The notes under the pieces are model-generated. The model did no database searches and was not told the origin of the DNA. It worked only from the letters and a program-made list of their open reading frames with translations. Below are positions 25,236 through 46,158 of a DNA stretch of 47,575 nucleotides, in pieces. The translations under genes and the position numbers were made by a program. Source of the stretch: Oscillospiraceae bacterium (GTDB lineage Bacteria; Bacillota; Clostridia; Oscillospirales; Ruminococcaceae). Every line of letters begins with the position of its first letter. Position 1 is the stretch's first letter. Where the stretch lies: positions 1 through 47,575 of the forward strand of contig JAKSPL010000016.1 of the NCBI GenBank assembly GCA_024404815.1, written 5' to 3'.

Positions 25236-26609
25236 TTAATGCTTTGGGGATTTTTTCGCAGGCTTCTGTGCTTTCTTCTGTTTCGATTTGTGAATTACCA
25301 GAAGCAGGATGGCAATGACCAGAACCGCTGCAATGCCGATCCAGACAAACAGGCAGACACCCAGCAGCTGCACAGGACAAATGCCGCAGAGTTTACAGGA
25401 CGGTGTGACGGGTTCGTTGTCGATGCCTGCGTCATTGGCAAAGAGCATTGCATCATCCACAGCATTGTCATCCAATGCTGCCTCCTCATTTGCTGCAAGC
25501 TGAGCGTCCGTTGTTTCGCTGTGGATACAGCTGACTACATTCGACCACTCCGATGCCATGCCGTCTGCTGTATTGCAGACGATGCGTGCGCGGAATTCCA
25601 CATTGCTTTCGGGGGCAAGGGGACTGTCTGCGGCGTAGACCGTAGTGCGGTAGCCGCCGTTGAGCCATGCAGCATTTTCTCCGTAGGCATCTGTCCATTC
25701 GCCGTCGTCCACGCGAATCTGTGTTTCGATGAGGTAGGGGTCAAAGACATTTTCGCAGGCGAGATAGTATTTCTGTCCGTCGTAGACGCTTTGCGGAATG
25801 TCCATATAGTATTTTGCGTTGCAGTATCCCGTTTCGTCAATCAGCACCTCGAATTCCGAAAGTGTCGGAGCTTCTATGGAATCTGGCTTTTGCAGGATCG
25901 GGAGATTCTCGGCTGGTCCGATAGAGGCTTCGGGGGACCTGTCGCTGAAAATCGCTTTTTGCTGTTCGGAGACGCCCACTCCGTCAAAATCCATATAGGA
26001 ATAGGGGAGATAGCAGCGGTAGCGATAGGTGAATGTATGATTTTCAAGATCGTACTGACAGAAGCCTGCCGTGTCCTTCGTGACGCAGGGTTCCGAAAAC
26101 GGGTACTTCTCCTTTTCGGTTTCATAGTACGCAAGGTAAGCCTGCATGACGCTGTGCATTCTGGAACAGTCGTCCAGCCAGAATACATCGTCCACCTTGA
26201 AGCATTCGGTTTCTGTGTCGATTTTCTCGCCGTAGTCCAGATTATCCCAGTCGCCTGTCGAAGAAAGCCACGCACCATCGTCGATTTTCATATCCATCTG
26301 GATATGACAGCCGTCGTTCAGTTCGATTTGATACTGTGTGTAGAAATCATCCTCGCCAAGCCGTTCGAATTCGTCAAAGACTGCGGTGATCTCGGTCGGG
26401 ACATCATAGTAAAAATTGAGCTGACCGCCGATCGCCGTACCGTCTGCCATGGTGTTGACATAGGTGAGGTAGGGCGCGGCGGAAGGTGTCGGGATTTTAC
26501 CGTTCGGGAAAAAGGTATCGACAAAGCTGCTTGCATCTGCTGATGCGGAAAGTGCGCCAAACGGTGCAAGCGTCAGAAGCGCACCGAGAAAAACAGCGAT
26601 TCGTTTCAT
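25236..26609 (-). CDS. Surface protein with signal peptide and C-terminal membrane anchor, unknown function
   Basis: 457 residues. The frame is open to 26753, but GGAGGAATTCTT before the ATG at 26609 opens a clear signal peptide (MKRIAVFLGALLTLAPFGAL, cleavage near SASA-DA). The extracellular part is rich in Asp, Tyr and Trp and has two similar motifs, MDMKIDDGAWLSSTG and IETQIRVDDGEWTDAYG, suggesting two beta-sandwich modules. A cysteine cluster (CKLCGICPVQLLGVC) comes just before the single C-terminal helix (about 416-440) and a Lys-rich cytoplasmic tail. No sortase motif or dockerin is present. I recognise no family. Confidence 0.8.
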   Translation of the reverse strand: MKRIAVFLGALLTLAPFGALSASADASSFVDTFFPNGKIPTPSAAPYLTYVNTMADGTAIGGQLNFYYDVPTEITAVFDEFERLGEDDFYTQYQIELNDGCHIQMDMKIDDGAWLSSTGDWDNLDYGEKIDTETECFKVDDVFWLDDCSRMHSVMQAYLAYYETEKEKYPFSEPCVTKDTAGFCQYDLENHTFTYRYRCYLPYSYMDFDGVGVSEQQKAIFSDRSPEASIGPAENLPILQKPDSIEAPTLSEFEVLIDETGYCNAKYYMDIPQSVYDGQKYYLACENVFDPYLIETQIRVDDGEWTDAYGENAAWLNGGYRTTVYAADSPLAPESNVEFRARIVCNTADGMASEWSNVVSCIHSETTDAQLAANEEAALDDNAVDDAMLFANDAGIDNEPVTPSCKLCGICPVQLLGVCLFVWIGIAAVLVIAILLLVIHKSKQKKAQKPAKKSPKH

Positions 26610-26657
26610 AAGAATTCCTCCATGCTGTGTTTTGCGGCAGATGCCGTTTCTTTGTCC

Positions 26658-26686
26658 ATTATACCATAGAATCTGTCGGAAAGCAA
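26658..26686 (-). promoter_or_regulatory. Promoter of the surface protein gene
   Basis: Minus strand TTGCTT, 17 bases, TATAAT, about 50 bases before the start. Confidence 0.75.
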
Positions 26687-26739
26687 TCTTTTTTCTTTGT
26701 GGAATGTAGAAAATCCTACGGTTGGATATGGACAGAACC

Positions 26740-26768
26740 TTGACGCAGGACAATATCTGTGCTATAAT
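26740..26768 (+). promoter_or_regulatory. Promoter of the 281-residue membrane protein gene
   Basis: TTGACG, 17 bases, TATAAT, 33 bases before the ATG at 26802. Confidence 0.8.
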
Positions 26769-26801
26769 AAAAAGGCTTCAAATTATGAGGGAGGAATCGA
26801 A

Positions 26802-27647
26802 ATGGGAAAAATAAAACAATGGTTCTGCGGACAAAAGATGAGCTGGCTGAAAGTGATTCTGCTGGCAGTGGGGAGTGCCGTCTATACGGCGGTGATGCTT
26901 CTGCTTCCACCGCTGAAAGACACATCTTTTCAGGACATCGGCGTTTATCTGGAATGCTGGATCCTGCTTGCATTGTTCATCATTGTCAACTGCAAAAAAT
27001 GGTGGGAGGCAATGCTGAAATGCTTTATGTTTTTCCTTATCAGCCAACCGCTGATCTATCTGCTGCAGGTTCCGTTTTATATTGACGGCTTCGGGATTTT
27101 CCGCTTCTACAAATCGTGGTTCAATATGACGCTTCTGACGCTTCCGGGTGCTGTGATCGCCTATCAGGTGAAGCGAAAAGACTGGCTGAGTGTTCTGGTG
27201 CTTTCTGTGGCGAATGGTTATCTTGCCTATCAGGCGGTGACATATCTGCGGATGACGATCGGAAATTTTCCGCACCATCTGCTGAGTTTCCTGTTCTGCA
27301 TCGCGCTGATCGTGTTCTTCACGTTCTTACTGCTGGACAAGGGAAGTCATCGTGTGACTGCTTTGGTGCTTGCGGCAGGTATCTTCGCAGGAACAGTCTG
27401 TATCTGCGGTATCGGACTCAAAAAGGAAACCGAAGAGATCACCTTGCCGACAGGTGAATGGACCGTCACGATTGATGATGAAACGGTCGCATCTGTTGAG
27501 ATTACAGGCGAAACGACTGCCGATATCACGGCAAAGAAAAACGGCGATACGTTCCTGACATTTGAAGCAGCGGACGGGCAGTCAGTAGAGTATTATGTAA
27601 CGGTCAACAATGGAAATTTGTTCCTCGATGAAATGGACGCTGAATGA
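26802..27647 (+). CDS. Polytopic membrane protein with extracellular C-terminal domain, unknown function
   Basis: 281 residues. About seven hydrophobic segments occupy residues 13-210, then a C-terminal domain of about 70 residues rich in Thr and Glu (starting near ETEEITLPTGEWTVTIDDE), probably outside the cell and shaped like a small beta domain. No family was recognised; the layout recalls membrane proteins with a terminal Ig-like domain. GAGGGAGGAATCGA precedes the ATG; an upstream in-frame start at 26697 lies before the promoter and is rejected. The terminator follows within a few bases. Confidence 0.75.
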   Translation: MGKIKQWFCGQKMSWLKVILLAVGSAVYTAVMLLLPPLKDTSFQDIGVYLECWILLALFIIVNCKKWWEAMLKCFMFFLISQPLIYLLQVPFYIDGFGIFRFYKSWFNMTLLTLPGAVIAYQVKRKDWLSVLVLSVANGYLAYQAVTYLRMTIGNFPHHLLSFLFCIALIVFFTFLLLDKGSHRVTALVLAAGIFAGTVCICGIGLKKETEEITLPTGEWTVTIDDETVASVEITGETTADITAKKNGDTFLTFEAADGQSVEYYVTVNNGNLFLDEMDAE

Positions 27648-27652
27648 TTTTC

Positions 27653-27687
27653 AAAACACATCCCGAAATATCGGGGTGTGTTTTTTT
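27653..27687 (+). terminator. Terminator of the membrane protein gene
   Basis: 14-base arms (AAAACACATCCCGA / TCGGGGTGTGTTTT, one G-T pair) and seven Ts. Confidence 0.9.
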
Positions 27688-27717
27688 GTAACACCCGAAG
27701 TGATGCTGTGTATAAAC
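27687..27717 (+). promoter_or_regulatory. Two-part TGTAACAC/TGTATAAAC element 1
   Basis: TGTAACAC, 14 bases, TGTATAAAC. First of five copies with identical spacing. It begins in the T run of the preceding terminator. See the separate finding for the two readings: an alternative-sigma promoter or a direct-repeat operator. Confidence 0.6.
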
Positions 27718-27820
27718 ATCCAGAAGCGAGTTCACGGATGACAAGACGGCTTCGGCGCAGAGATATATTGGAATTTGTCTGCTGCCTGAACGGCTTTTTC
27801 GGAAAAGCTTCTGACATTCA

Positions 27821-27851
27821 TGTAACACCAAACGCATTGATGTGTATCAAC
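27821..27851 (+). promoter_or_regulatory. Two-part TGTAACAC/TGTATAAAC element 2
   Basis: TGTAACAC, 14 bases, TGTATCAAC: one change from element 1. Confidence 0.6.
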
Positions 27852-27914
27852 TGAGGGACGCGGAACTGCTTCGATAAACGGCAGTCCGAATTGTCCGAGA
27901 GAATACACATACGA

Positions 27915-27945
27915 TGTAACAACTGCTCAATTCGAGTGTATAAAC
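27915..27945 (+). promoter_or_regulatory. Two-part TGTAACAC/TGTATAAAC element 3
   Basis: TGTAACAA, 14 bases, TGTATAAAC: one change from element 1. Confidence 0.6.
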
Positions 27946-28105
27946 TCACAGCCAAACATCTTCTGCATGATGCATACATTCCGCATACAAAGCTGACATT
28001 CTTGTTTGTTCGCGGGTATACGTTTATCACAGAAGATTGAAGAACTACGGTATTCGGCAGCAGTTACCGCAGAACTGTGCAGGCAGGATCAAACGCCGCA
28101 CATAA

Positions 28106-28136
28106 CGCTGTAACACTTACCGAATATGCGGGTATA
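28106..28136 (+). promoter_or_regulatory. Two-part TGTAACAC/TGTATAAAC element 4
   Basis: TGTAACAC, 14 bases, GGTATACTG. The second half is the most divergent. It is the closest copy to the peptide operon, 145 bases before the first small frame. Confidence 0.55.
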
Positions 28137-28280
28137 CTGAGACAGGGAACGGTTTGGTTAAAGGGAATATAGTTCACACGCAAAGCCACAAATACTTGTT
28201 TGCTCGTTGACGCATATTCCATTTCCGAACTGTGAAGCAAAATGCTGCGGCATTTCCTGCATTTGTGAGGATACACACCC

Positions 28281-28391
28281 ATGAAAACGATTACGATTTC
28301 ACAGCATCAAGATACAGCACATTCGAAGCTGATATTTTCGCACAGTCTGACTACTGCTGCTGTGGAATACGCAACAATGAAGGAGTTTTGA
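28281..28391 (+). CDS. Possible 36-residue leader peptide
   Basis: Frame starting MKTITISQHQDTAHSKLIFS and ending ATMKEF, with GAGGAT about 9 bases upstream. Its stop (28389-28391) is four bases before the next ATG and its end overlaps that gene's AAGGAG, a layout typical of translational coupling. It has no double-glycine motif or membrane helix. It may be a regulatory leader or chance. Confidence 0.35.
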   Translation: MKTITISQHQDTAHSKLIFSHSLTTAAVEYATMKEF

Positions 28392-28394
28392 ACA

Positions 28395-28868
28395 ATGGAA
28401 ATCACTGAAAACAACATGATCGAACTGACGAACGTCCTGTCATTCCGCGGAAAGATCACCCAGCGTCAGGCAGGAGATATTACCAAGCAGATGAAAGAGA
28501 TCGTAGATCAGAGCGGTGCTGTCAAGAACGGTCCGATGATCACTGCAACGCATTCGATCGACACCAACGGTGCAGAGCCTCTGATGGATATTGAAATGAT
28601 GATTCCGCTTGATCGTGCTGTAACCGTTTCGGCTCCGTTCCAGTTGAAACCGTTGTTCCGCCTTTGCAATGCAGTCAAGATCCGTCATCAGGGCAATCCT
28701 GAAAAGGTCCAGAATACTGCAAAAGAGCTGATGGAGTTTATCCAGTCCAACAAGCTGACACCTGTGACCCCCGGCTACAATGTTACCATGCAGGAGCCGA
28801 AAGGTCCGGAGGATATGGACAACCTGATCATTGATATGTACGTTGGTGTCAGCTACAATATTCTCTGA
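28395..28868 (+). CDS. Small GyrI-like (effector-binding fold) protein at the head of the peptide operon
   Basis: 157 residues, soluble. The pattern of strands, the mid-protein GPMITATHSIDTNGAEPLMD followed by IEMMIPLD, and the C-terminal IIDMYVGVSYNIL resemble GyrI-like/AraC effector-binding proteins, which bind small amphipathic molecules in a cleft. That match is by eye and uncertain. There is no DNA-binding domain. AAGGAG lies nine bases before the ATG. Only 119 bases separate it from the first double-glycine peptide, with no terminator, so it is likely co-transcribed. It might sense or protect against the peptides, or control their synthesis; this is inference. Confidence 0.7.
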   Translation: MEITENNMIELTNVLSFRGKITQRQAGDITKQMKEIVDQSGAVKNGPMITATHSIDTNGAEPLMDIEMMIPLDRAVTVSAPFQLKPLFRLCNAVKIRHQGNPEKVQNTAKELMEFIQSNKLTPVTPGYNVTMQEPKGPEDMDNLIIDMYVGVSYNIL

Positions 28869-28987
28869 TCATCAGCCTGAATCCGTTATGAAAGTGCCAT
28901 GCAGATCTCCATATCGGATGTTTGAATGTGCATTTTGATAAATAACTCACCACAAAACACACTAACAATCACAGGAGGTTCATTGCT

Positions 28988-29131
28988 ATGAACGAAATCA
29001 AAACAACCGGTTTCGCAGCACTGTCTGAACAGGAAACCATGGCGATCGACGGCGGTTCCATTTTGACCGATATTATGATCGGTGCAATCAAGTTTGCCGT
29101 CTGGACAGCCACTCATCCCGTTATTCTTTGA
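28988..29131 (+). CDS. Double-glycine leader peptide 1 (bacteriocin-like)
   Basis: 47 residues: leader of 23 (ends FAALSEQETMAIDGG) and a 24-residue core beginning SILTDIMIGAIKF and ending HPVIL. AGGAGG lies 9 bases before the ATG. The leader has the class II pattern F-x-x-L-S ... I-x-G-G, cut after GG by the C39 domain of the transporter at 31503. The core is hydrophobic with one Lys and one Trp and no Cys, consistent with a membrane-active peptide. Confidence 0.85.
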   Translation: MNEIKTTGFAALSEQETMAIDGGSILTDIMIGAIKFAVWTATHPVIL

Positions 29132-29277
29132 GCGCTGAGCGTGTAAGTGTTCAGTCAGGTGAATCAGATCACCGCTGATTACGTACAGGTTCGGCAAATA
29201 CCGAGCGGATATGGCAGGGGGAACTCTGCCATCCGCAAGCGGAATTTCTATCACTACTTGAAAGGAGGATGAAATCT

Positions 29278-29409
29278 ATGACAAAGTCTTTCACTGAGCT
29301 GTCTGCTGCTGAGCAGATGGAAATTGATGGCGGTATGTTTTCTTGGCCGGCATTGCCGATTATTGTGACTACATGGATCGTCAGCAAGATCTATGGTCTG
29401 TTTCACTGA
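29278..29409 (+). CDS. Double-glycine leader peptide 2 (bacteriocin-like)
   Basis: 43 residues: leader of 19 (MTKSFTELSAAEQMEIDGG) and a 24-residue core starting MFSWPALPIIV, with two Trp and two Pro and no Cys. AAAGGAGG lies 8 bases before the ATG. Leader and ribosome binding site are nearly identical to peptide 3, so the two arose by duplication while the cores diverged fully. A hairpin (ATGGCAG/CTGCCAT, 29208-29230 region) sits in the gap before it. Confidence 0.88.
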   Translation: MTKSFTELSAAEQMEIDGGMFSWPALPIIVTTWIVSKIYGLFH

Positions 29410-29526
29410 TCCTCACGAAATGCGTGTATCCCGAAAAAGCTGTCGGCAATTCTGAAACGGCAGGGGCAATACTCTGCTCCGTACAGCATTTTCGTTGATA
29501 TTTTCTCAGAAAGGAGGATGCACTCT

Positions 29527-29667
29527 ATGACCAAGTCTTTCACCGAGCTGTCTGCTGCTGAGACCATGGAACTTGAGGGCGGCAGAATCAGCACTATTAT
29601 GCTTCCTGCATTTGGCCCGCTTCTCGGCATTTATGTTCCGAGTATTTTTAAGCCGATCATTTTCTGA
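29527..29667 (+). CDS. Double-glycine leader peptide 3 (bacteriocin-like)
   Basis: 46 residues: leader of 19 (MTKSFTELSAAETMELEGG) and a 27-residue core starting RISTIMLPAFGPLLG and ending FKPIIF, rich in Pro and Ile, with no Cys. AAAGGAGG lies 7 bases before the ATG. It is a paralogue of peptide 2 in the leader only. Confidence 0.88.
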   Translation: MTKSFTELSAAETMELEGGRISTIMLPAFGPLLGIYVPSIFKPIIF

Positions 29668-29730
29668 TTTTCAGCACACAATCTTCTACAAAACACAATT
29701 ATCAATCAATGAAAAAGGAGTATTACAATT

Positions 29731-29865
29731 ATGGAACTTACTAACACTCAATTCGCAGCACTTTCGAACGATGAAATGATGGACACCGAAGGCGGATGCC
29801 TTCTTATCGTCGGTGCAATTATTGTTGGCGTGGGCTTTATACATATCTGCAAATATTGCCTGTAA
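29731..29865 (+). CDS. Double-glycine leader peptide 4 (bacteriocin-like)
   Basis: 44 residues: leader of 22 (MELTNTQFAALSNDEMMDTE-GG) and a 22-residue core CLLIVGAIIVGVGFIH-ICKYCL, with three Cys and G-x-x-x-G-like glycine spacing. A disulphide between terminal Cys residues is possible. AAAAGGAG lies 9-10 bases before the ATG. Its leader is shared with peptides 5-7. Confidence 0.88.
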   Translation: MELTNTQFAALSNDEMMDTEGGCLLIVGAIIVGVGFIHICKYCL

Positions 29866-29891
29866 TAGCTTCGATAGGAAGGAATAATAGG

Positions 29892-30041
29892 ATGGAACTG
29901 AAGAATACAAAATTCGAAGCACTTTCGAATGAAGAACTGATGGACACAGAAGGCGGATTTCTGCGTTATCTGCTCTATATCTGCAATCCTACATATCGTC
30001 TGCTGACGGATGTGGTGAATCTGGTTTCGAAATCCAAATAA
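29892..30041 (+). CDS. Double-glycine leader peptide 5 (bacteriocin-like)
   Basis: 49 residues: leader of 22 (MELKNTKFEALSNEELMDTE-GG) and a 27-residue core starting FLRYLLYICNPTYRLL and ending VSKSK. The core is more cationic than its neighbours (two Arg, two Lys) and has one Cys. It starts 26 bases after peptide 4, preceded by AGGAAGGA, and was probably born from it by duplication. Confidence 0.88.
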   Translation: MELKNTKFEALSNEELMDTEGGFLRYLLYICNPTYRLLTDVVNLVSKSK

Positions 30042-30084
30042 TCCACAGGCATCTGTAATCCCATTTTGGGACAGATCACATGAT

Positions 30085-30219
30085 CGAATGCAGGAGGTTG
30101 TGCGAAACAGCCTTGTTGACAGCATGACCTCTTACATATACACTTTTTATACTTTCTATACTATATTAAAAGGAGAATAATACTATGGAACTCACTACTA
30201 CAAATTTCGCAGCACTTTC
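30085..30219 (+). repeat. 135-base direct repeat, copy A (leader region of peptide 6)
   Basis: From CGAATGCAGGAGGTTGTGCG through the first twelve codons of peptide 6. Nearly identical to 30384-30518; I see only two or three differences. It contains a 10-bp hairpin (GAGGTTGTGC with GCATGACCTC, counting G-U pairs), TTGACA at 30116, and an A+T-rich run ending in AAAAGGAG. Confidence 0.9.
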
Positions 30220-30334
30220 TAGCAATGACATGATGGATATTGAAGGCGGCAAATTCTCTCTTCCGAGCAAGGTTGAAGTTTTGTGCTGGGCAGCAACCAC
30301 AGCTATCGGCTTTGTTTCCCTTTTCTATAACTAA
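30185..30334 (+). CDS. Double-glycine leader peptide 6 (bacteriocin-like)
   Basis: 49 residues: leader of 22 (MELTTTNFAALSSNDMMDIE-GG) and a 27-residue core starting KFSLPSKVEVLCWAATT and ending SLFYN, with one Cys and one Trp. AAAAGGAG lies 10 bases before the ATG. Its upstream region and first twelve codons are repeated almost exactly at peptide 7. Confidence 0.88.
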   Translation: MELTTTNFAALSSNDMMDIEGGKFSLPSKVEVLCWAATTAIGFVSLFYN

Positions 30335-30383
30335 TCAGCATACCGGCAAATGTCGGTTTCCGCTTTGATGCGGATCCTATACC

Positions 30384-30518
30384 CGAATGCAGGAGGTTGT
30401 GCGAAACAGCCTTGCTGACAGCATGACCTCTTACATATACACTTTTTATACTTTCTATACTATATTAAAAGGAGAAAAATACTATGGAACTCACTACTAC
30501 AAATTTCGCAGCACTTTC
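30384..30518 (+). repeat. 135-base direct repeat, copy B (leader region of peptide 7)
   Basis: Second copy, 299 bases downstream of copy A. The main change is C for T in the TTGACA-like hexamer (CTGACA), plus one base near the ribosome binding site. Confidence 0.9.
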
Positions 30519-30639
30519 GAACGATGAAATGATGGACATTGACGGCGGCATTGGTCTGGTAGCTGCCGGACTTATCTGCGCAGGCTGCTTTGTGCTTGGC
30601 GGTCTGATCGTTGGCGGCATCTGCTTCCTCGTTGGCTAA
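30484..30639 (+). CDS. Double-glycine leader peptide 7 (bacteriocin-like)
   Basis: 51 residues: leader of 22 (MELTTTNFAALSNDEMMDID-GG) and a 29-residue core IGLVAAGLICAGCF-VLGGLIVGG-ICFLVG. The core is very rich in Gly, with repeated G-x-x-x-G spacing and three Cys and no charged residue, like pore-forming two-peptide bacteriocins. AAAAGGAG lies 9-10 bases before the ATG. Confidence 0.9.
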   Translation: MELTTTNFAALSNDEMMDIDGGIGLVAAGLICAGCFVLGGLIVGGICFLVG

Positions 30640-30693
30640 TCAACTTTTTTCAAATATCTGATTATTTAATAACGTAAAAGGAGAACTAAGACT

Positions 30694-30861
30694 ATGACTA
30701 ATTTTGTTGAACTGAATGCAACTGAACTTGAAACGATTGACGGCGGTTCCCCGGCGTGGTGGGTACTGATGGGTGCTGCGATTGCCGTAGCAGCTGCTTG
30801 CAATACCGTATTTGATTTGGGCAAGAATGTTGGCTCTACCGTTTACTATCTGACTCACTAA
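30694..30861 (+). CDS. Double-glycine leader peptide 8 (bacteriocin-like)
   Basis: 55 residues: leader of 18 (MTNFVELNATELETIDGG) and a 37-residue core starting SPAWWVLMGAAIAVAAAC and ending GSTVYYLTH. It has a Trp pair, an Ala/Gly helix and a C-terminal tyrosine pair resembling the end of the leaderless peptide at 31152. AAAAGGAG lies about 11 bases before the ATG. Confidence 0.9.
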   Translation: MTNFVELNATELETIDGGSPAWWVLMGAAIAVAAACNTVFDLGKNVGSTVYYLTH

Positions 30862-30883
30862 TTGATTATAATATAAGGAGAAT

Positions 30884-31063
30884 ATGAACATGATGGATAA
30901 TATGAATATGATGAAAGAAATGACAAATGAAGAACTCTATGCAGTTGATGGTGGTTTTGTAATCACTACGACCACACTTGTAATCTGTGCAGTTTCCTCT
31001 TTCTGCCTGGGCGGCCTTTTCGGCGCAGGTGTTTATGTCGGCTATAGAGAAGCAGGCAAATAA
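30884..31063 (+). CDS. Double-glycine leader peptide 9 (bacteriocin-like)
   Basis: 59 residues: Met/Asn-rich leader of 24 ending MTNEELYAVDGG, and a 35-residue core starting FVITTTTLVICAVSSFC and ending GYREAGK. The core has two Cys, then GGLFGAGVYVG with G-x-x-x-G spacing. AAGGAG lies 5 bases before the first ATG (30884); a start at the ATG 30890 is also possible and spaced better. Only the last part of the leader matches the others. Confidence 0.85.
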   Translation: MNMMDNMNMMKEMTNEELYAVDGGFVITTTTLVICAVSSFCLGGLFGAGVYVGYREAGK

Positions 31064-31151
31064 TCGGTAACATCATTGATGCAACGGTGAACGCATACAC
31101 GTTGATAACTTGGCGCTGTATGCGTTTTCCCAATGCAATGGAGGGATAAAC

Positions 31152-31292
31152 ATGAAAGACGTATTCAACTATATCTGTTCCAATAGAACCTTGCAGGTTG
31201 CATTGGGAATTGCGGCCATTTTGATTCTGTGCATTCTTGTATTTGGCTTTGGAAGACGAATGGGCGAATTGATGTATTATTTGAAGCACTGA
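31152..31292 (+). CDS. 46-residue membrane peptide without leader (immunity or leaderless peptide candidate)
   Basis: 46 residues: MKDVFNYICSNRTLQ, then one membrane helix (about 15-34, VALGIAAILILCILVFGFG), then a basic end (GRRMGELMYYLKH). GGAGGGATAAAC lies before the ATG. It is the last gene before the terminator at 31366 and has no double-glycine site. Small single-helix proteins at the end of bacteriocin operons often give immunity; its G-R-x-x-G-x-x-x-Y-Y end also resembles some bacteriocin cores, so a leaderless toxin is the alternative. Confidence 0.75.
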   Translation: MKDVFNYICSNRTLQVALGIAAILILCILVFGFGRRMGELMYYLKH

Positions 31293-31365
31293 TTTGATAT
31301 GAAATCGCTGCAAATGTGTCGATATCTGAATAAGATGATGATTGCGGCTTTCATATCCGAATTCA

Positions 31366-31396
31366 GAACCCGTTCCATACAGGAACGGGTTCTTTT
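31366..31396 (+). terminator. Terminator of the peptide operon
   Basis: Perfect 11-bp stem GAACCCGTTCC/GGAACGGGTTC, 5-base loop, then TTTT. It separates the peptide genes from the transporter genes. Confidence 0.9.
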
Positions 31397-31401
31397 ATAT
31401 T

Positions 31402-31432
31402 TGTAACACTTTTTTTCTTGTTGTGTATATAT
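31402..31432 (+). promoter_or_regulatory. Two-part TGTAACAC/TGTATAAAC element 5, likely promoter of the transporter genes
   Basis: TGTAACAC, 14 bases, TGTATATAT. It lies five bases after a strong terminator and 70 bases before the transporter ATG, just where its promoter must be. This ties the four upstream copies to transcription of the same system. Confidence 0.65.
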
Positions 31433-31502
31433 ATACAGCAAGGGCGAAAGGGTTCAGAAAGAATCCACCCGAAAACAAAGAAAGAACATAGGATGTGAAC
31501 CG

Positions 31503-34022
31503 ATGAAGTACATTTGCGTAAAACAACACGACATTGCTGACTGCGGTGCAGCTTGCTTGGCAACGATCTCCAAGCAGTACGGTCTGAATATTCCGATTTC
31601 GCGGATCCGTGAGATCGCAGGCACCGACAAGCAGGGCACCAACGCCTACGGCATGATCAAGGCAGCTGAGGAGCTCGGCTTTACGGCGAAGGGTGTCAAG
31701 GGCGATCAGGATGCGTTTTTCAGCGAGTTTCCGCTCCCTGCGATCGCACACATCGTCGTAGACGGCAGCCTTCTGCACTACGTTGTTGTCCATAAGATCA
31801 CCAAGAAACAGGTAATCATTGCCGATCCCGGAAAGGGCATCGTCAAATACACACCTGAGGAATTCTTCAAGGTCTGGACCGGCGTCCTGATCCTGATGGT
31901 CCCGACGGTGAAGTTCAAGAAGGGCAATGAGAATCAGGGTGTTCTTTCCCGATTCTTCAGCCTGATCCTTCCGCAGAAGCGTCTGCTTGTAAACATTTTC
32001 CTTTCTTCTCTGATCATTACCGTTTTTGGTATTTTGTCATCGTTCTACTTCCGGTTTATCATGGATGACATTGTACCGAACGGATTAAAGAAAAGTCTTT
32101 TGACGCTTTCGATCGGCGTCATCGCGCTCTACTTATTCAAAGCAGTTCTCGAAGCGTTCCGCTACCGACTGATGATGTATCTTGCACAAAAGCTTGACAT
32201 CCCGTTGGTGCTTGGATATTACCAGCACGTACTTGGTTTGCCGATGAACTTCTTCGGCACGAGAAAAGTCGGTGAGATCGTTTCCCGATTCATGGATGCT
32301 TCGAAAATCCGTGATGCGATCTCCAGCGCAACACTTTCCATTATGATCGATACGCTGATGGCTCTGGCAGGCGGCGTGGTACTTTATATGCAGAATAAAC
32401 TGCTGTTCGGTATTTCGCTGGTAGTCGTTCTACTGTATGCGGTGATCGTATTCGCATTCAACAAGCCTGTAAAGAACATCAACGAAAAGCAGATGGAGGA
32501 AAACGCACAGCTGACCTCCTACCTGATGGAATCCCTCAACGGCATTGAAACGCTGAAAGCATTCAGCGCAGAAGAAAAAGCACAGTCCAAGACCGATACA
32601 CTCTTTGTCCGTTTCCTGAGAAGCGTATTCAAGGGCGGCATGATCACCAACGCACAGCAGACCATTACCACGGTTGTTTCGACCGTCGGTACGACCGTTA
32701 TCCTCTGGGTCGGCGTTGTTGCAGTTCTGAAAGGTGAAATGACGATCGGCAGCCTGATCACATTCAACTCGCTGCTGGCTTACTTCCTTGATCCTGTCAA
32801 GAACCTCATCAACCTCCAGCCGACCATGCAGACCGCGATCGTTGCGGCAGAACGTCTGAGCGAGATCCTCGACCTCGAACTGGAAAAGGATGCAAACGAG
32901 AACAGAAAGCTTGTTCCTGATTCGCTCAACTATCCGATTCGCATTGAAAACGTAGATTTCCGCTACGGTACCAGACGTCTGATCCTGGACGACCTCAGCA
33001 TGACCATCGGCGCAGGCGAACGCATCGCGCTGGTCGGCGAGAGCGGCTCCGGTAAGACCACCCTCACCAAGCTTCTCATGGCATTCTATCCGTGGGAAAA
33101 AGGTGAAATTTACATTGGCGACTACAACCTCAAAGACATCAGTCTTGATGCACTTCGCAGCAAGATCGCGTACATCTCGCAGGACATCTTCCTGTTCAGC
33201 GGTACGATTCGTGAAAACCTGCAAATGGGCAATGAGGATGCGACCATGGAACAGATCGTTGCAGCCTGCAAGCTCAGTAAGGCAGATGAATTTATCAACC
33301 AGCTTCCGCTTCGTTATGAAACGATGCTCGAAGAAAACGGTGCAAACCTCTCCGGCGGTCAGCGTCAGCGTCTTGCAATCGCAAGAGCACTGCTGAAAAA
33401 CCCCGACATTCTGATTATGGACGAAGCGACCAGTGCGCTGGACTCCATTACCGAAAAGGCAATCGAAAAGACCATCAACAGCCTGCCGCGCAACATCACG
33501 ACCATCATCATCGCACACAGACTCAGCACGATCATGCGCTGCGACCAGATCTACGTGATGGAAAAGGGCAAGTTCATCGAAAAAGGTACACACGACGAAC
33601 TGCTCCAGCAGCAGGGCAGATACTACAAACTCTGGAAAGATCAGCTTCCTGACAATATGTCCTCGATGCCTGCACAGATTCCGATGCAGCACACCGAAGC
33701 ATCCTTCACGCAGAAGGCAACTGACAGCCAGTCCTCCACGCTGACCAACGCAAGACCTGCTCTGGGCAGCAGCGCACTCAGCAATATGCAGAGCGTTGGC
33801 AGACCGGCAGCACTTTCCAATCAGACCAATGCACTCTCCAATACACAGACCACCGCAAGACCTGTGGCTCTGTCCAACCAGACATCTTCTCTCAGCAACA
33901 CACAGTCCACCGTCAGACCTGCGGCTCTGTCGAATCAGACCTCCGCGCTGACCAACGGTACGATCACTCAGGTTTCTATTGATAAACGTGTCAATGCTTG
34001 TATTTCAAATCTTCATAATTAA
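31503..34022 (+). CDS. Peptidase-containing ABC transporter (C39, bacteriocin export) with repeat-rich C-terminal tail
   Basis: 839 residues. The N-terminal C39 peptidase (1-about 135) has C14 in QHDIADCGAACL, H92 in LLHYVVVH and D108 in IADPG, with Q8 as oxyanion residue. It cuts leaders after Gly-Gly. Six membrane helices (about 155-440) are followed by an ATPase (about 475-715) with Walker A GESGSGKTTL, signature LSGGQRQRLAIARALL and Walker B ILIMDEATSALD. Family members usually stop near residue 720; this one runs on for about 115 residues of Ser/Thr/Asn/Gln-rich sequence with a period of about 19 to 20 residues (RPAALSNQTNALSNTQ, RPVALSNQTSSLSNTQ, RPAALSNQTSALTN). It exports and matures the nine peptides upstream. 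The HlyD partner follows after 11 bases. Confidence 0.95.
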   Translation: MKYICVKQHDIADCGAACLATISKQYGLNIPISRIREIAGTDKQGTNAYGMIKAAEELGFTAKGVKGDQDAFFSEFPLPAIAHIVVDGSLLHYVVVHKITKKQVIIADPGKGIVKYTPEEFFKVWTGVLILMVPTVKFKKGNENQGVLSRFFSLILPQKRLLVNIFLSSLIITVFGILSSFYFRFIMDDIVPNGLKKSLLTLSIGVIALYLFKAVLEAFRYRLMMYLAQKLDIPLVLGYYQHVLGLPMNFFGTRKVGEIVSRFMDASKIRDAISSATLSIMIDTLMALAGGVVLYMQNKLLFGISLVVVLLYAVIVFAFNKPVKNINEKQMEENAQLTSYLMESLNGIETLKAFSAEEKAQSKTDTLFVRFLRSVFKGGMITNAQQTITTVVSTVGTTVILWVGVVAVLKGEMTIGSLITFNSLLAYFLDPVKNLINLQPTMQTAIVAAERLSEILDLELEKDANENRKLVPDSLNYPIRIENVDFRYGTRRLILDDLSMTIGAGERIALVGESGSGKTTLTKLLMAFYPWEKGEIYIGDYNLKDISLDALRSKIAYISQDIFLFSGTIRENLQMGNEDATMEQIVAACKLSKADEFINQLPLRYETMLEENGANLSGGQRQRLAIARALLKNPDILIMDEATSALDSITEKAIEKTINSLPRNITTIIIAHRLSTIMRCDQIYVMEKGKFIEKGTHDELLQQQGRYYKLWKDQLPDNMSSMPAQIPMQHTEASFTQKATDSQSSTLTNARPALGSSALSNMQSVGRPAALSNQTNALSNTQTTARPVALSNQTSSLSNTQSTVRPAALSNQTSALTNGTITQVSIDKRVNACISNLHN

Positions 34023-34033
34023 GGAGTCCACCC

Positions 34034-35935
34034 ATGAAAGGTATTGTGATTGACCTCAAAGATATGTCCGATAGCCGCGAAGTCCTCGAAAGCAAGGAAG
34101 CACCCGGCATCCGTTGGTTTATTTACATCCTGCTGACTGCGCTGATCGCCGCTATCATCTTTGCCTGCGTTTTTGAGGTGGATGAATGTGTCCGCGTACA
34201 GGGCGAGATCAAATCGGCAGACGCAGAAAGCTCTGTGCTTGCAACCGCAAGCTGCTGCATCAAGGAGATCAATGTGACTGAAGGACAGTCCGTCAAGAGC
34301 GGCGATGTCCTCTATGTCCTCGATGCGGATTATGCGATCGACCGTAAGGCAGCCCTGACTGCTCAGCTGGACGGTTATACTTCGGATCTCGACAATACGA
34401 TGCTTCTGAAACAGTCCATCGAGTCGAATGTCAATCTTCTGGACAATACCCCTGAATGCTCCAAATACTACTATCGTTATGAACAGTATCAGAACGGTGT
34501 GCAGCTCAGCGAACAGGAATTTGAACGCAATCAGCAGAGCAGCAACCTGACACTCGAAGAAAAACAGCGCAACCTTTCCGATACCAAGAACGCGATCAGC
34601 TCCAAACGCGCACAGCTCCGTGAATACCGCGCACTTGCAGACTGCATCCAGTCCGATTGTGCATACGGCGGCGGCGACGCACAGGTAATGACACAGTACA
34701 ATGACTATGCAGCAGCCCGCGAAAAGGCATTGCAGGCATCTCAGCAGTACAAGTCCGCTTACGATGCAGCTGTCAATCAGCTGAACACACAGGACAACAA
34801 TCTTGTTTCCGCTTATCAGGTAGAATCCGCAAAGGCAGCACAGGATGCTGTACAGCAGGCAATGACCGTTTTGCAGTCCTCGTTCCTGACCGACCTTCGC
34901 TCGAAGATCCTCGTTTGTGAAAACCAGATCGCTGCTGCACAGGCAGGCGTGGGCAGTGCAGATGTCCAGACCGTTTCTCAGCAGCTTGCAGAATACACCA
35001 AGCTTCAGACCGCAGTCGAACAGAATGCTGCATTCTCCACTCCGCTTGCAGATGTACAGGCAATGTACAACCAGTATGCAGCGAATTTCCAGAACCTCGC
35101 TGCGGATTATCAGAACAAGACCGCTGAATACGAAACCCTTTGCGGCAAGTATGAAGCACAGGCAAAGAACATCACCAGCGCAGATGTCGATATGTCCAAG
35201 ACCTCTTACGAAAGTGCGCTCAGCGATGTCAGCACCGTCAAGAACAACTACACCGCACAGATCTATTCCACCATCTCCCAGCTCGAAACCGAGATTCAGT
35301 CGCTTGACAGCAGCCGTGCAGGTCTGGAAGCATCCATCAACGGCACCGAAGACCTCACCGAATATGAAAAACTTTCCGGCGATAAGATGAGAAATGAAGC
35401 AATCATCTCCATCAACTCCGAGATCGACAGCCTCAACCAGACCGTTGCATCCGTCAAGGCACAAATTGCTGAACTGGATGAAACGATCAAGAATTCCGAG
35501 ATCAAAGCAGCGGTTGACGGTGTTGTAACACTTGTCAATGAGATGAATGTCGGCGATATTGTCAGCTCCGGTTCTTCTCTCTGCACGATTCTTCCGACAA
35601 CCGAAGACCTCAAAGTAATGCTTTATATCCCTGAAAATGAAGTATCCAAGCTGACTGTCGGTCAGTCTACCGAGTACGCATTCGATGCTATCCCGTACCA
35701 CGAATACGGCAAAGTCAAGGGCGAGATCCAGTCGATTTCCGCAGACTCCATCGGCGATGAAAAGAGCAGTGCGAAGTATTACCTCGCACAGGCTGATCTG
35801 TCCGCTGTATCGCTCGAAAACGACAAGGGTGAAACCCGTGACGTCAAGGTCGGTATGCTTGTTGAGGGTAAGATCATCACCCAGTCCAAGAAAGCCATGA
35901 TCTGGTTCTTGCAGAAACTGAATCTTTGGAATTAA
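34034..35935 (+). CDS. HlyD-family membrane fusion protein of the peptide exporter
   Basis: 633 residues. A short cytoplasmic N-terminus is followed by one membrane helix (about 27-46, WFIYILLTALIAAIIFACVF). Next are a first biotinyl-lipoyl half (VLATASCCIKEINVTEGQSV), a very long coiled-coil region rich in Gln, Ala, Ser and Glu (about 105-490), the second lipoyl half (IKAAVDGVVTLVNEMNVGDI) and a beta barrel. It links the ABC transporter to the cell exterior, as LcnD/ComB/MesE-type accessory proteins do, and is longer than those (about 450-475 residues), perhaps to cross a thick wall. AAGGAG lies 8 bases before the ATG. It forms an operon with the transporter. Confidence 0.92.
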   Translation: MKGIVIDLKDMSDSREVLESKEAPGIRWFIYILLTALIAAIIFACVFEVDECVRVQGEIKSADAESSVLATASCCIKEINVTEGQSVKSGDVLYVLDADYAIDRKAALTAQLDGYTSDLDNTMLLKQSIESNVNLLDNTPECSKYYYRYEQYQNGVQLSEQEFERNQQSSNLTLEEKQRNLSDTKNAISSKRAQLREYRALADCIQSDCAYGGGDAQVMTQYNDYAAAREKALQASQQYKSAYDAAVNQLNTQDNNLVSAYQVESAKAAQDAVQQAMTVLQSSFLTDLRSKILVCENQIAAAQAGVGSADVQTVSQQLAEYTKLQTAVEQNAAFSTPLADVQAMYNQYAANFQNLAADYQNKTAEYETLCGKYEAQAKNITSADVDMSKTSYESALSDVSTVKNNYTAQIYSTISQLETEIQSLDSSRAGLEASINGTEDLTEYEKLSGDKMRNEAIISINSEIDSLNQTVASVKAQIAELDETIKNSEIKAAVDGVVTLVNEMNVGDIVSSGSSLCTILPTTEDLKVMLYIPENEVSKLTVGQSTEYAFDAIPYHEYGKVKGEIQSISADSIGDEKSSAKYYLAQADLSAVSLENDKGETRDVKVGMLVEGKIITQSKKAMIWFLQKLNLWN

Positions 35936-35968
35936 ATCTCTTTCGCATCCATCTTTCACATCCTTTAT

Positions 35969-35999
35969 GACCGCAGATTGATTCTGCGGTCTTTTTTTT
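35969..35999 (+). terminator. Terminator of the exporter operon
   Basis: 9-bp perfect stem GACCGCAGA/TCTGCGGTC, 5-base loop, eight Ts. Confidence 0.95.
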
Positions 36000-36010
36000 C
36001 TGGGAAATAC

Positions 36011-36039
36011 TTGAATTTGGAAACAGTTTGTTGTATAAT
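36011..36039 (+). promoter_or_regulatory. Promoter of the second ABC transporter
   Basis: TTGAAT, 17 bases, TATAAT, 35 bases before the ATG at 36074. Confidence 0.8.
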
Positions 36040-36073
36040 GAGGGTATCTTAAATAAAGAGGGAGTTGATACCT

Positions 36074-37930
36074 ATGGCCCCACCTATGGGCGGACGCGGC
36101 GGACGGTTTCTGACAGACGAAGAAATGGAAAATCGTCCAAAGGTCACAAAAGAACTGCTGATTCGTATTTTTTCGTACCTGAAACCATATACGAAGCAGT
36201 TCTGTCTGGTACTCGCTGCGATTCTGATTTCGTCGATTTTCAACCTCCTGCCATCTGTTCTGACAGGTAAGATCATCGACGAGGGACTCATCGGGAGAAG
36301 CATGAGCAAGCTTGTCACATTTATTGTGCTGTCGCTTCTGGTCACGCTTGCCGCAAATCTGATCGGCGTTCTCGAAAGTTACCTCAATACATGGATCGCA
36401 CAGCATATCACGTTTGATATGCGAAACAAGATGTATCTGCATCTGCAAAAAATGTCCCAGCGATTCTTCACGACAAACAATCAGGGCGACATCATTACCC
36501 GTATGACCAGCGATATTTCGGGCGTGCAGCAGATCATTACCAGCACGCTCACCAGCATCATCTCCAATTCGATCACGCTGGTGGTTGCGCTTGTGGTCAT
36601 GTTCCAGAAAAACTGGATTCTGGCACTCATCGGTCTGGTCGTTGTGCCGCTGTTCACCATTCCGACCAGAAGCGCAGGCAAAACGCGCTGGTCGATCACC
36701 AATGAATCGCAGGCGTGCAGCGATGAGATCAACGGTATTCTGAATGAAACCCTGTCTGTCAGCGGCCAGCTTCTCGTGAAACTGTTCGGCAGAGAACAGC
36801 ATGAGTACGAGAAGTATGAAAAGGTCAACAAAAAGATGATCGACCTCAATATCCGCGAGAGCATGGCAGGCAGATGGTTCCGTGTTGTACTCAGTACGTT
36901 TTCCAGTATCGGACCGATGCTTTTGTATCTGGTCGGCGGCATTCTGATGATGAAGTTCGATTCCGATCTGACTGTCGGTGATGTAAGTGTTCTGGTCGCA
37001 TTGCTGTCGAGAATGTACGGTCCTGTCAATCAGCTGCTGAACATTCAGGTGGACTGGATTCGTTCGATGTCAATGTTTACCCGTATTTTCTCGTATTTTG
37101 ATATGCCTGTCGAGATTGAGAACGCCCCCGATGCGATTACTCCGACCGAGGTGGACGGCAGAGTGGAGTTCAATAATGTCGGCTTTTACTATGACGAGGA
37201 GCGTCAGATTCTCAAGGACATCAATTTCGAGCTGGAAAGCGGCAAGTGCGTTGCGATCGTCGGGCCGTCAGGCTCAGGCAAGAGTACGCTGGTCAACCTG
37301 ATTCCGCGTCTGTACGATGTCACATCGGGTACGGTGACTTTTGACGATGTCGATGTCCGCAATCTCGATCTGGGTTTCCTGCGGCAGCATATCGGCATTG
37401 TCAGTCAGGAAACCTACCTCTTTAACGGTACGATCCGTGACAATCTGCTCTATGCAAAGCCGGATGCGACAGAAGAAGAACTGATCTCTGCGTGCAAGCA
37501 GGCGAATATCTATGACATGATACAGAATCAGGAGGATGGTCTGGATACACTGGTCGGCAACCGCGGCCTGAAACTGTCGGGCGGCGAAAAACAGCGTATT
37601 TCCATTGCGCGTGTCCTGCTGAAAGATCCGACGATCATGATTTTCGACGAGGCAACTTCGGCACTTGATTCGATTTCCGAGCAGAAGATCCAGGATGCGA
37701 TCGAACCGCTGATCGAATCCCGCACCAGTATTCTGATCGCGCACAGACTTTCAACGATCCTCGCCGCAGACGAAATTCTCGTCATTCAGGACGGTGTGAT
37801 CGCAGAGCGCGGTACGCACGACGAACTGGTCGGTGCAGGCGGTGTTTACACCCAGCTTTACGAAACACAGTTCAGCAAGGCAATGCCTGCCAAGGACGAG
37901 CCGTTTGAATACACCGAGGGTGAAGATTGA
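36074..37930 (+). CDS. ABC exporter, fused membrane and ATPase domains (multidrug/lipid type)
   Basis: 618 residues, half-transporter that must dimerise. Six membrane helices (about 35-320) precede an ATPase domain with Walker A GPSGSGKST, signature LSGGEKQRISIARVLL and Walker B IMIFDEATSALD. There is no C39 peptidase. GAGGGAG precedes the ATG at 36074 by nine bases; a TTG at 36065 is less likely. The N-terminus is Gly/Pro-rich (MAPPMGGRGGRF), usual in the YknV/LmrA-like group. It stands right after the peptide export operon but has its own promoter, so a role in self-protection against the peptides is possible, not shown. Confidence 0.93.
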   Translation: MAPPMGGRGGRFLTDEEMENRPKVTKELLIRIFSYLKPYTKQFCLVLAAILISSIFNLLPSVLTGKIIDEGLIGRSMSKLVTFIVLSLLVTLAANLIGVLESYLNTWIAQHITFDMRNKMYLHLQKMSQRFFTTNNQGDIITRMTSDISGVQQIITSTLTSIISNSITLVVALVVMFQKNWILALIGLVVVPLFTIPTRSAGKTRWSITNESQACSDEINGILNETLSVSGQLLVKLFGREQHEYEKYEKVNKKMIDLNIRESMAGRWFRVVLSTFSSIGPMLLYLVGGILMMKFDSDLTVGDVSVLVALLSRMYGPVNQLLNIQVDWIRSMSMFTRIFSYFDMPVEIENAPDAITPTEVDGRVEFNNVGFYYDEERQILKDINFELESGKCVAIVGPSGSGKSTLVNLIPRLYDVTSGTVTFDDVDVRNLDLGFLRQHIGIVSQETYLFNGTIRDNLLYAKPDATEEELISACKQANIYDMIQNQEDGLDTLVGNRGLKLSGGEKQRISIARVLLKDPTIMIFDEATSALDSISEQKIQDAIEPLIESRTSILIAHRLSTILAADEILVIQDGVIAERGTHDELVGAGGVYTQLYETQFSKAMPAKDEPFEYTEGED

Positions 37931-42982: not shown

Positions 42983-42999
42983 GATTCAAACTCCTTTTC

Positions 43000-44529: not shown

Positions 44530-44547
44530 GGTGCATCCTCCTTTTTC

Positions 44548-46068: not shown

Positions 46069-46158
46069 AGTAATCCCTCCTGAATGTTTTGCCATTGTTT
46101 GTAATATTCACACAAAATATAACTTTCTGTAAACTTAAACACAACAATCTATATAAGT

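What the first reader, a model, noticed from the sequence alone, without database searches (positions are those of the whole stretch)
28281..35935. Nine-peptide double-glycine export locus
Nine consecutive small genes encode leaders ending in GG with different hydrophobic cores of 22-37 residues, next to a C39 ABC transporter and a HlyD protein. No lanthipeptide, radical-SAM or other tailoring enzyme is present in the window, so the products look unmodified. Nine substrates for one transporter is far above the usual one to three of class II bacteriocin operons. The leaders fall into families (peptides 2-3; 4-7; singletons 1, 8, 9) while cores diverge completely, which suggests selection for diversity: a cocktail bacteriocin or a set of signals. 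Leader and transporter logic is established; the activity is inference.
Basis: partly seen in the sequence, partly recalled or inferred. Interest (0 to 1): 0.88.

Follow-up and report, generated by a model that had tools for sequence, protein, structure and literature searches.

The report
Nine-peptide bacteriocin-like export regulon
A gut Ruminococcus carries a compact locus that appears to make and export nine different small greasy peptides, probably weapons against rival bacteria; their export tags look copied from one another while the active parts look swapped.

Summary
Nine intact ORFs with double-glycine (GG) leaders lie at 28988-31063 beside a C39-peptidase ABC exporter and an HlyD protein. 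The same scan finds only these nine in 47.6 kb; 20 simulated windows gave 0 or 1. The locus really begins near 27.7 kb.

(1) A GyrI-like gene (28395-28868), present with the exporter in seven of seven close relatives that can be judged, though not in all distant ones. (2) A leaderless 46-residue peptide (31152-31292) resembling the peptide 8 core; an unrelated locus has an equivalent pair. (3) A promoter-like motif, TGTAACA-N14-GTGTATA, five times here (two copies with one mismatch) and before other leader-peptide genes in this genome and two other genera. (4) A tenth GG peptide elsewhere under that motif.

Peptides 4, 7 and 9 pass the class IIb bacteriocin model. Peptides 6 and 7 share 133 nt with 2 mismatches, yet their cores are unrelated: duplication with core replacement.

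Best reading: a patchy, co-regulated class II bacteriocin locus of rtg/blp type, with one class IIb pair (8/9), a mimic-like immunity candidate and seven short orphan peptides. Activity is inferred; the multi-peptide format is known.

The parts
27687..28136 (+). Array of four promoter-like motif copies (27687-27714, 27821-27848, 27915-27942, 28109-28136) ahead of the cargo operon
   Evidence: two exact, two with one mismatch; promoter function inferred
28395..28868 (+). GyrI-like / DUF5085-like protein, 157 aa
   Evidence: Pfam GyrI-like E 1.1e-4 and DUF5085 E 1.7e-4, both below cut-off; co-located with the exporter in relatives
28988..29131 (+). GG peptide 1, core 24 aa
29278..29409 (+). GG peptide 2, core 24 aa (ATG at 29269 possible)
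29527..29667 (+). GG peptide 3, core 27 aa (ATG at 29518 possible)
29731..29865 (+). GG peptide 4, core 22 aa, over the TIGR03949 cut-off
29892..30041 (+). GG peptide 5, core 27 aa (TIGR03949 below cut-off)
30085..30251 (+). First copy of the duplicated 5'UTR + leader block of peptides 6 and 7 (second copy 30384-30550)
30185..30334 (+). GG peptide 6, core 27 aa
30484..30639 (+). GG peptide 7, core 29 aa, over the TIGR03949 cut-off; leader mosaic of peptide 6- and peptide 4-type
30694..30861 (+). GG peptide 8, core 37 aa, GxxxG; putative class IIb subunit
   Evidence: (TIGR03949 18.3 bits, below cut-off 21.5)
30884..31063 (+). GG peptide 9, core 35 aa, two GxxxG; over the TIGR03949 cut-off; putative class IIb subunit (start at 30890 possible)
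31152..31292 (+). Leaderless 46-aa hydrophobic peptide resembling the peptide 8 core; immunity candidate
   Evidence: (z 11.2, E 1.1e-4 over 328 comparisons)
31365..31393 (+). Terminator-like hairpin closing the cargo operon
   Evidence: 12 pairs; consensus match only
31402..31429 (+). Promoter-like motif ahead of the exporter operon
   Evidence: exact match
31503..34022 (+). C39-peptidase ABC exporter (PCAT), 839 aa
34034..35935 (+). HlyD-type accessory protein, 633 aa
35969..35991 (+). Terminator-like hairpin closing the exporter operon

Best explanation
A two-operon export locus for unmodified bacteriocin-like peptides, switched on through a dedicated promoter element. Operon 1 (four motif copies, GyrI-like gene, peptides 1-9, leaderless peptide, terminator) makes the cargo; operon 2 (one motif copy, PCAT, HlyD, terminator) makes the exporter. 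The C39 domain cuts each precursor after GG and releases a 22-37 residue membrane-active peptide. Peptides 8 and 9 most likely act together as a class IIb two-peptide bacteriocin, and the leaderless peptide behind them is the immunity peptide: it looks like a membrane-anchored copy of the peptide 8 core and may protect by pairing with peptide 9 or by occupying the target. Peptides 1-7 are short orphan bacteriocins, spectrum-widening partners or signals. Variety arises by tandem duplication of 5'UTR + leader with replacement of the core, and the module spreads horizontally. Shown: anatomy, family matches, motif distribution, duplication with core replacement, mimic similarity, patchy distribution. 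Inferred: secretion, killing, immunity, promoter function, horizontal spread, the role of the GyrI-like protein.
For: Nine leaders and a PCAT over the TIGR01193 cut-off. Peptides 4, 7, 9 over the TIGR03949 cut-off. Order GG peptide, GxxxG GG peptide, short leaderless peptide as in L113 and as in Abp118. CPBP/Rce1-like genes, a bacteriocin-immunity type, near exporter or GG peptides in four relatives, L013, L016, L018, L113. The motif heads both operons, is absent from the 29 other genomes of the genus (exact form), and elsewhere precedes leader-peptide genes. UTR + leader copying with unrelated cores in three loci. Patchy exporters: 10 of 396 family genomes including the own one.
Against: No activity, expression or secretion data. 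No immunity candidate recognised for peptides 1-7. The factor that would read the motif was not found, and the motif is absent from the relatives' loci (exact form; best matrix score 14.0 in L032 and 12.1 or less in the others). C18 carries a one-mismatch site before a non-peptide gene, and 5 of 13 sites in other genomes precede nothing of the kind. Peptide 8 itself is below the class IIb cut-off. The GyrI-like gene is not found in G152 although its exporter is 67% identical, and it also occurs without a PCAT. Mimicry is absent in the Abp118 immunity protein.
Confidence: 0.6

Rival explanations
1. The peptides are secreted signals or community modulators (pheromone- or biofilm-type GG peptides) rather than weapons; variants serve strain-specific addressing.
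For: Seven short cores lack a recognised immunity gene. Peptide 8 also matches the ComC pheromone model just over its cut-off (21.9 against 20.4 bits). PCATs also export signals (PMC7018657 passages).
Against: Class IIb model matches. No histidine kinase, response regulator or Rgg-type receptor was recognised beside the locus by eye (not searched with models). Nine unrelated cores would need nine receptors. The ComC match covers the leader only.
Confidence: 0.15
2. Only peptides 8/9 (with the leaderless immunity peptide) are a working bacteriocin; peptides 1-7 are drifting duplicates, i.e. a graveyard of cores without function.
For: Immunity candidate only for 8/9. Duplicated UTR + leader blocks. 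Decayed related clusters exist (L131; broken GyrI-like copy in L113).
Against: All nine frames are intact with strong ribosome sites and complete leaders. Locus L014 independently keeps nine intact ones.
Confidence: 0.12
3. The leaderless peptide 31152-31292 is itself a leaderless bacteriocin or a paralogue of peptide 8 that lost its leader, not an immunity peptide.
For: It resembles the peptide 8 core; leaderless bacteriocins exist (PMC7332713, listing only).
Against: Same position and order in an unrelated locus (L113); related leaderless peptides stay just upstream of the exporter in L013 and L023 without a matching core, which suits immunity better. Short class IIb immunity proteins of 42-55 aa are known (PMC6957408 passages).
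Confidence: 0.3
4. The products are modified by enzymes encoded elsewhere, i.e. the locus is a RiPP system acting in trans.
For: The same motif also precedes a Nif11-like precursor in this genome and similar ones in G358 (TIGR03798 just below cut-off for the two scanned). L022 has a radical-SAM-like ORF near its exporter (by eye).
Against: None of the nine matches a Nif11 model at E up to 10. No tailoring gene was recognised in the locus or in the complete close relatives (by eye). Distant parts of this genome were not searched for tailoring enzymes.
Confidence: 0.06

Closest known systems
Pneumococcal rtg locus (Wang et al. 2020, PMC7018657; passages and section 9 read)
   Same: PCAT + accessory protein + several GG peptides with conserved signal sequences + a GyrI-like gene (rtgX, 21.1% of 318 loci; rtgB intact 18.6% plus disrupted 2.5% gives the same 21.1%). 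GG peptides per strain and locus vary.
   Different: Rgg/SHP pheromone control; four GG peptides per strain in the two strains named and eight in all; no motif of this kind reported in what I read. Their function was also not determined by the authors.
Pneumococcal blp bacteriocin-immunity region (PMC6422914, passages)
   Same: Variable array of GG bacteriocins served by one PCAT; two-peptide bacteriocin with immunity genes.
   Different: Histidine kinase/regulator/pheromone control; recognised immunity genes.
Streptococcus infantarius LP90 multi-bacteriocin cluster (PMC7058333, abstract and outline)
   Same: Eight class II bacteriocins with secretion genes in one cluster; at least six shown to be produced.
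   Different: Immunity and regulation genes reported; other species.
Ruminococcus flavefaciens XPD3002 locus L014
   Same: 81% identical exporter, GyrI-like gene, HlyD, nine GG peptides.
   Different: Unrelated, often cationic cores; a LytTR-like regulator and kinase upstream (by eye) and no motif.
Class IIb bacteriocins with short immunity proteins, e.g. Abp118 on pMP118
   Same: Gene order two GG peptides, then a short hydrophobic immunity protein (I take the 55-aa gene to be AbpIM from its length and place).
   Different: The Abp118 immunity protein does not resemble either peptide (z 0.4 and -0.7).
Conserved-leader/hypervariable-core RiPPs such as Nif11-type and prochlorosin families (recalled; PMC2890512 seen only in the listing)
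   Same: One leader type, many unrelated cores.
   Different: Those are modified peptides; here no modifying enzyme and no Nif11 match.

Membership tests
Class II (unmodified, GG-leader) bacteriocin locus | Small precursors with GG leaders | tested here: met
   9 of 9
Class II (unmodified, GG-leader) bacteriocin locus | C39-peptidase ABC exporter with accessory protein | tested here: met
   TIGR01193 over cut-off; HlyD_3 over cut-off, but TIGR01000 (bacteriocin accessory) below cut-off
Class II (unmodified, GG-leader) bacteriocin locus | No modifying enzyme | tested here: inconclusive
   None recognised by eye; not all window ORFs were scanned
Class II (unmodified, GG-leader) bacteriocin locus | Dedicated immunity gene | tested here: inconclusive
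   One candidate, 31152-31292; none recognised for peptides 1-7
Class II (unmodified, GG-leader) bacteriocin locus | Antibacterial activity | not testable with these tools
   Needs peptide assays
Class IIb, lactobin A/cerein 7B family (TIGR03949) | Score over the curated cut-off | tested here: met
   Peptides 4, 7, 9 (24.1, 25.8, 29.0 bits; cut-off 21.5); not 5 and 8 (16.9, 18.3); no match for 1, 2, 3, 6
Class IIb, lactobin A/cerein 7B family (TIGR03949) | Two adjacent peptides with GxxxG | tested here: met
   Peptides 8 and 9
Class IIb, lactobin A/cerein 7B family (TIGR03949) | Synergy of the two peptides | not testable with these tools
   Needs assays
rtg-type locus | PCAT + accessory protein + several GG peptides with related signal sequences + GyrI-like gene | tested here: met
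   compared with table 2 of PMC7018657, no sequence comparison with rtgX
rtg-type locus | Rgg/SHP control | not tested
   No Rgg gene recognised beside the locus by eye; no model search
rtg-type locus | N-terminal signal motif at -22 to -18 | not tested
   rtg leader letters were not at hand
Nif11/NHLP RiPP precursors (TIGR03798) | Nif11-like leader | tested here: not met
   No match for any of the nine at E up to 10

The most novel reading that the evidence does not exclude
Ruminococcaceae run a dedicated secreted-peptide regulon from an ECF-sigma-like promoter (TGTAACA-N14-GTGTATA) that switches on GG- and Nif11-type leader peptides and BspA-type leucine-rich surface proteins together. Within it, class IIb bacteriocins are neutralised by a new kind of immunity: a leaderless, membrane-anchored copy of one of the two toxin subunits that poisons pore assembly. 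New weapons are made by copying UTR + leader and exchanging the core.
Probability: 0.3. Interest if true: 0.78.

Novelty: new variant of a known kind. Interest (0 to 1): 0.6.

Why it matters
If true, it gives a DNA tag (the motif) that finds exported peptide genes without any similarity between the peptides: searched across 396 family genomes it led to GG-leader precursors in two other genera. It also offers a simple, testable idea for an open question: a source read here says that the mechanism of immunity to two-peptide bacteriocins remains a mystery (PMC6957408, passage). And it documents leader-anchored core exchange in unmodified bacteriocin-like peptides of gut anaerobes.

Tried and rejected
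Rfam on 26000-37000: no family. Exporter and GyrI-like protein in viral contigs: candidates but no confirmed relative in either scan. A sigma gene carrying the motif itself: none convincing among 22 sigma-gene regions. Mimicry in the Abp118 immunity protein as a control: absent. The GyrI-like gene as an exclusive export partner: rejected; 23 of 396 family genomes have it (28 places), and 19 of 20 further stretches fetched show no C39 match, some of them only 5.6-6.1 kb long. Motif at two mismatches: not usable, 18 hits against 18 for the reversed pattern. More close exporters in the genera of G209 (11 genomes) and G256 (16): none new. Gapped DNA identities are inflated and were replaced by ungapped ones. 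The structure job for the GyrI-like protein was accepted but not finished at the last look, so no fold result is used. Literature on mimic immunity and on leader/core cassettes: nothing matching recognised in the listings, which cover the held open-access library only.
Full report
WHAT IS THERE. Its closest named exporter relatives are from Ruminococcus. Nine + strand ORFs with GG leaders run from 28988 to 31063, followed by a C39-peptidase ABC exporter (31503-34022) and an HlyD protein (34034-35935). The same scan over both strands of the 47.6 kb finds these nine and nothing else; 20 simulated windows gave 0 (18 times) or 1 (twice). Cores are 22-37 residues, hydrophobic, charge 0 to +3. NCBIfam TIGR03949 (class IIb, lactobin A/cerein 7B) is passed by peptides 4, 7 and 9; peptides 5 and 8 match below the cut-off; 1, 2, 3 and 6 do not match it.

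THE GYRI-LIKE GENE. A 157-aa GyrI-like/DUF5085-like gene (28395-28868) opens the operon; both Pfam scores are below cut-off. Of the eleven exporter relatives at 59-84% identity (L013-L023), seven have it upstream (L013, L014, L015, L017, L018, L019, L023); L016, L020 and L021 start too close to or inside the exporter to tell; L022 (59%, exporter apparently in pieces) shows none in the 3.2 kb held. Among more distant exporters, L010, L034 and L036 have a diverged copy after the exporter. Against a strict link: G152, whose exporter is 67% identical, has no match in the profile search, nor does G396 (41%); that search also missed the diverged copy of G011 (L010), so its absences are not proof. 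Nor is the gene exclusive to exporters: 23 of 396 family genomes have a match and 19 of 20 further stretches fetched show no C39 match. In 6 of 9 neighbourhoods printed it lies beside what looks by eye like a LytTR regulator/histidine kinase pair. On R. albus plasmid pRUMAL03 a 28% identical copy lies behind an annotated LytTR/GHKL pair and before huazacin-family RiPP genes. Against solved structures only BmrR appears, at E 0.83, not significant.

TWO OPERONS AND A SHARED SWITCH. Terminator-like hairpins at 31365-31393 and 35969-35991 split the locus into a cargo operon and an exporter operon. Both start with a motif, TGTAACA-N14-GTGTATA: four copies at 27687-28136 (two with one mismatch) and one at 31402-31429. 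Weight-matrix scores of these five are 23.3-26.3 against 12.5 for the next best place in the window; the matrix was built from these five and three remote sites. The whole genome has 5 exact sites and 0 of the reversed control; the 29 other genomes of the genus have none. With up to one mismatch there are 10 sites: the five here; three in front of leader-peptide genes elsewhere (a GG peptide on C11; a Nif11-like GG precursor that spans the ends of C43 and C11, read by eye across the contig ends; a precursor without GG at the head of an exporter cluster on C59); one in front of a BspA-type LRR protein (C33); one in front of a phosphoesterase-like gene (C18, by eye). At two mismatches the motif is indistinguishable from its reversed control (18 against 18).

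THE MOTIF ELSEWHERE. TGTAACAC-N13-GTGTATA occurs exactly in 6 of 396 family genomes, the reversed control in none of the rows shown. I looked at 13 distinct sites outside the own genome: 7 in G358 (10 of its 11 counted sites were listed, three of them repeating the letters of others), 3 in G295, one each in G099, G357 and G389. Five precede GG precursors and one a similar precursor without GG, with start codons 69-87 nt after the motif's first base (four GG and the one without in G358, one GG in G295); two precede LRR_5 proteins, one of them only as second ORF; five precede nothing of the kind or run into a contig end. The AAC core and the spacing resemble ECF-sigma promoters (recalled). No sigma gene with its own motif was found among 22, so the factor is unknown. 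The motif does not travel with the exporter: none of the close relatives' loci has it; L013 and L023 instead have genes resembling an agr system by eye, of which AgrB of L013 was confirmed (PF04647), and L014 a regulator/kinase pair by eye.

CORE EXCHANGE. Peptides 6 and 7 share the 100 nt before the start codon and the first 33 nt of the leader with 2 mismatches in all, then 6 mismatches in the next 33 nt, then nothing: 23 of 80 nt match after the GG codons. Peptide 7 has a 34-nt identical run with peptide 4 inside the leader, so its leader is a mosaic. Among 37 peptides from nine loci, 13 pairs have leaders at least 70% identical; 12 of these have cores at most 17% identical by position (one of the twelve, L013_7075/L023_4726, still shows a weak core match, E 0.0098), and one pair, in L018, has related cores. 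Two more pairs with near-identical UTR and leader but unrelated cores lie in L014 and L023. The 37 were taken from scan output by a list that I chose by eye; L016, L021 and L022 gave none. Selection was not tested.

A MIMIC IMMUNITY CANDIDATE. After peptide 9 lies a leaderless 46-aa hydrophobic peptide (31152-31292). It aligns with the peptide 8 core over 32 residues with one gap (z 11.2; E 1.1e-4 over 328 same-locus comparisons of 102 small ORFs with 46 GG peptides). A stronger case lies in L113, a locus without an exporter in the 12 kb held and with a broken GyrI-like copy: a leaderless 49-aa peptide against a GG core, E 1.4e-6, in the same order (mimicked GG peptide, second GG peptide, leaderless peptide), followed by a CPBP gene. 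The third hit (L131, E 0.0085) is a glycine-rich match in a broken cluster. All other pairs of the 25 listed have E above 1. L013 and L023 have related leaderless peptides directly upstream of the exporter (z 4.1-5.4 to the window's), but no matching core at their own locus. In Abp118, used as a control with an immunity gene of known type, gene order is the same but there is no resemblance. A membrane-anchored copy of one subunit could block assembly; that step is inference.

DISTRIBUTION. Exporters at E up to 1e-180 occur in 10 of 396 family genomes, the own one included. In the genus only 3 of 29 others pass 1e-150, at 41-42% identity, while R. flavefaciens and other genera have 78-84%. This suggests horizontal transfer; no tree was built. 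GC falls to 41-45% over the peptide genes against about 50% around.

PRIOR ART. The closest system read is the pneumococcal rtg locus (PMC7018657, passages and section 9), which also has a GyrI-like gene. Eight class II bacteriocins in one cluster are on record (PMC7058333, abstract). IIBacFinder mined gut genomes at scale (PMC12648078, a commentary, first of two parts read), so sequences like these may already sit in such a catalogue. The Hungate1000 survey (PMC13289728; abstract, passages, section 10) mentions R. flavefaciens XPD3002 for lanthipeptides in the passages seen. Passages only were read of PMC6957408, PMC10059821, PMC6422914 and PMC10301443. I recognised no description of this locus, the motif or mimic immunity in the searches, which cover a held open-access library only.

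VERDICT. A real, well-formed locus of a known kind (multi-peptide class II bacteriocin-like export) with three testable features that I did not find described: the shared promoter motif, the mimic-like leaderless peptide, and clean UTR + leader copying with core exchange.

Noticed in passing
window 33650-34019: The exporter carries a C-terminal tail of about 120 residues with an ALSNQT-type repeat (57-nt unit, 2.5 copies); its full-length close relatives are 748-781 aa against 839 here.
   Followed up: partly
G000:C11, L133 6024-6227 (- strand): A lone GG peptide with a 47-aa core and the same promoter-like motif (one mismatch), with no exporter recognised in the 12 kb held; possibly served by the window's exporter.
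   Followed up: partly
G000:C59, L135 3369-13040: Second peptide export cluster under the motif: precursor without GG, HlyD-like gene, C39 ABC exporter, further ABC gene and a BspA-type LRR protein.
   Followed up: partly
window 41447-46095 (- strand): Three tandem genes that look by eye like dockerin-bearing serpins.
   Followed up: no
L131 6500-9300 (G362): Apparently decayed relative of the locus: a GyrI-like remnant, a GG peptide, and an ORF whose start resembles the exporter's first residues running into a bacteriocin-like glycine-rich core. Described only.
   Followed up: partly
L014 4160-4267 and 4310-4417: Two near-identical 35-aa ORFs behind a putative LytTR regulator/kinase pair in R. 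flavefaciens XPD3002; possible signal peptide genes.
   Followed up: no
L022 489-1325: The 59% identical exporter of a Lachnospiraceae MAG lies near an ORF with a radical-SAM-like cysteine motif (by eye), so this exporter clade may also serve modified peptides.
   Followed up: no
L132 5784-15146 (R. albus 7 plasmid pRUMAL03): LytTR regulator, kinase, GyrI-like gene, two identical huazacin-family RiPP peptides, radical SAM protein, ABC genes and a CPBP protein on a 15.9-kb plasmid (annotation).
   Followed up: no
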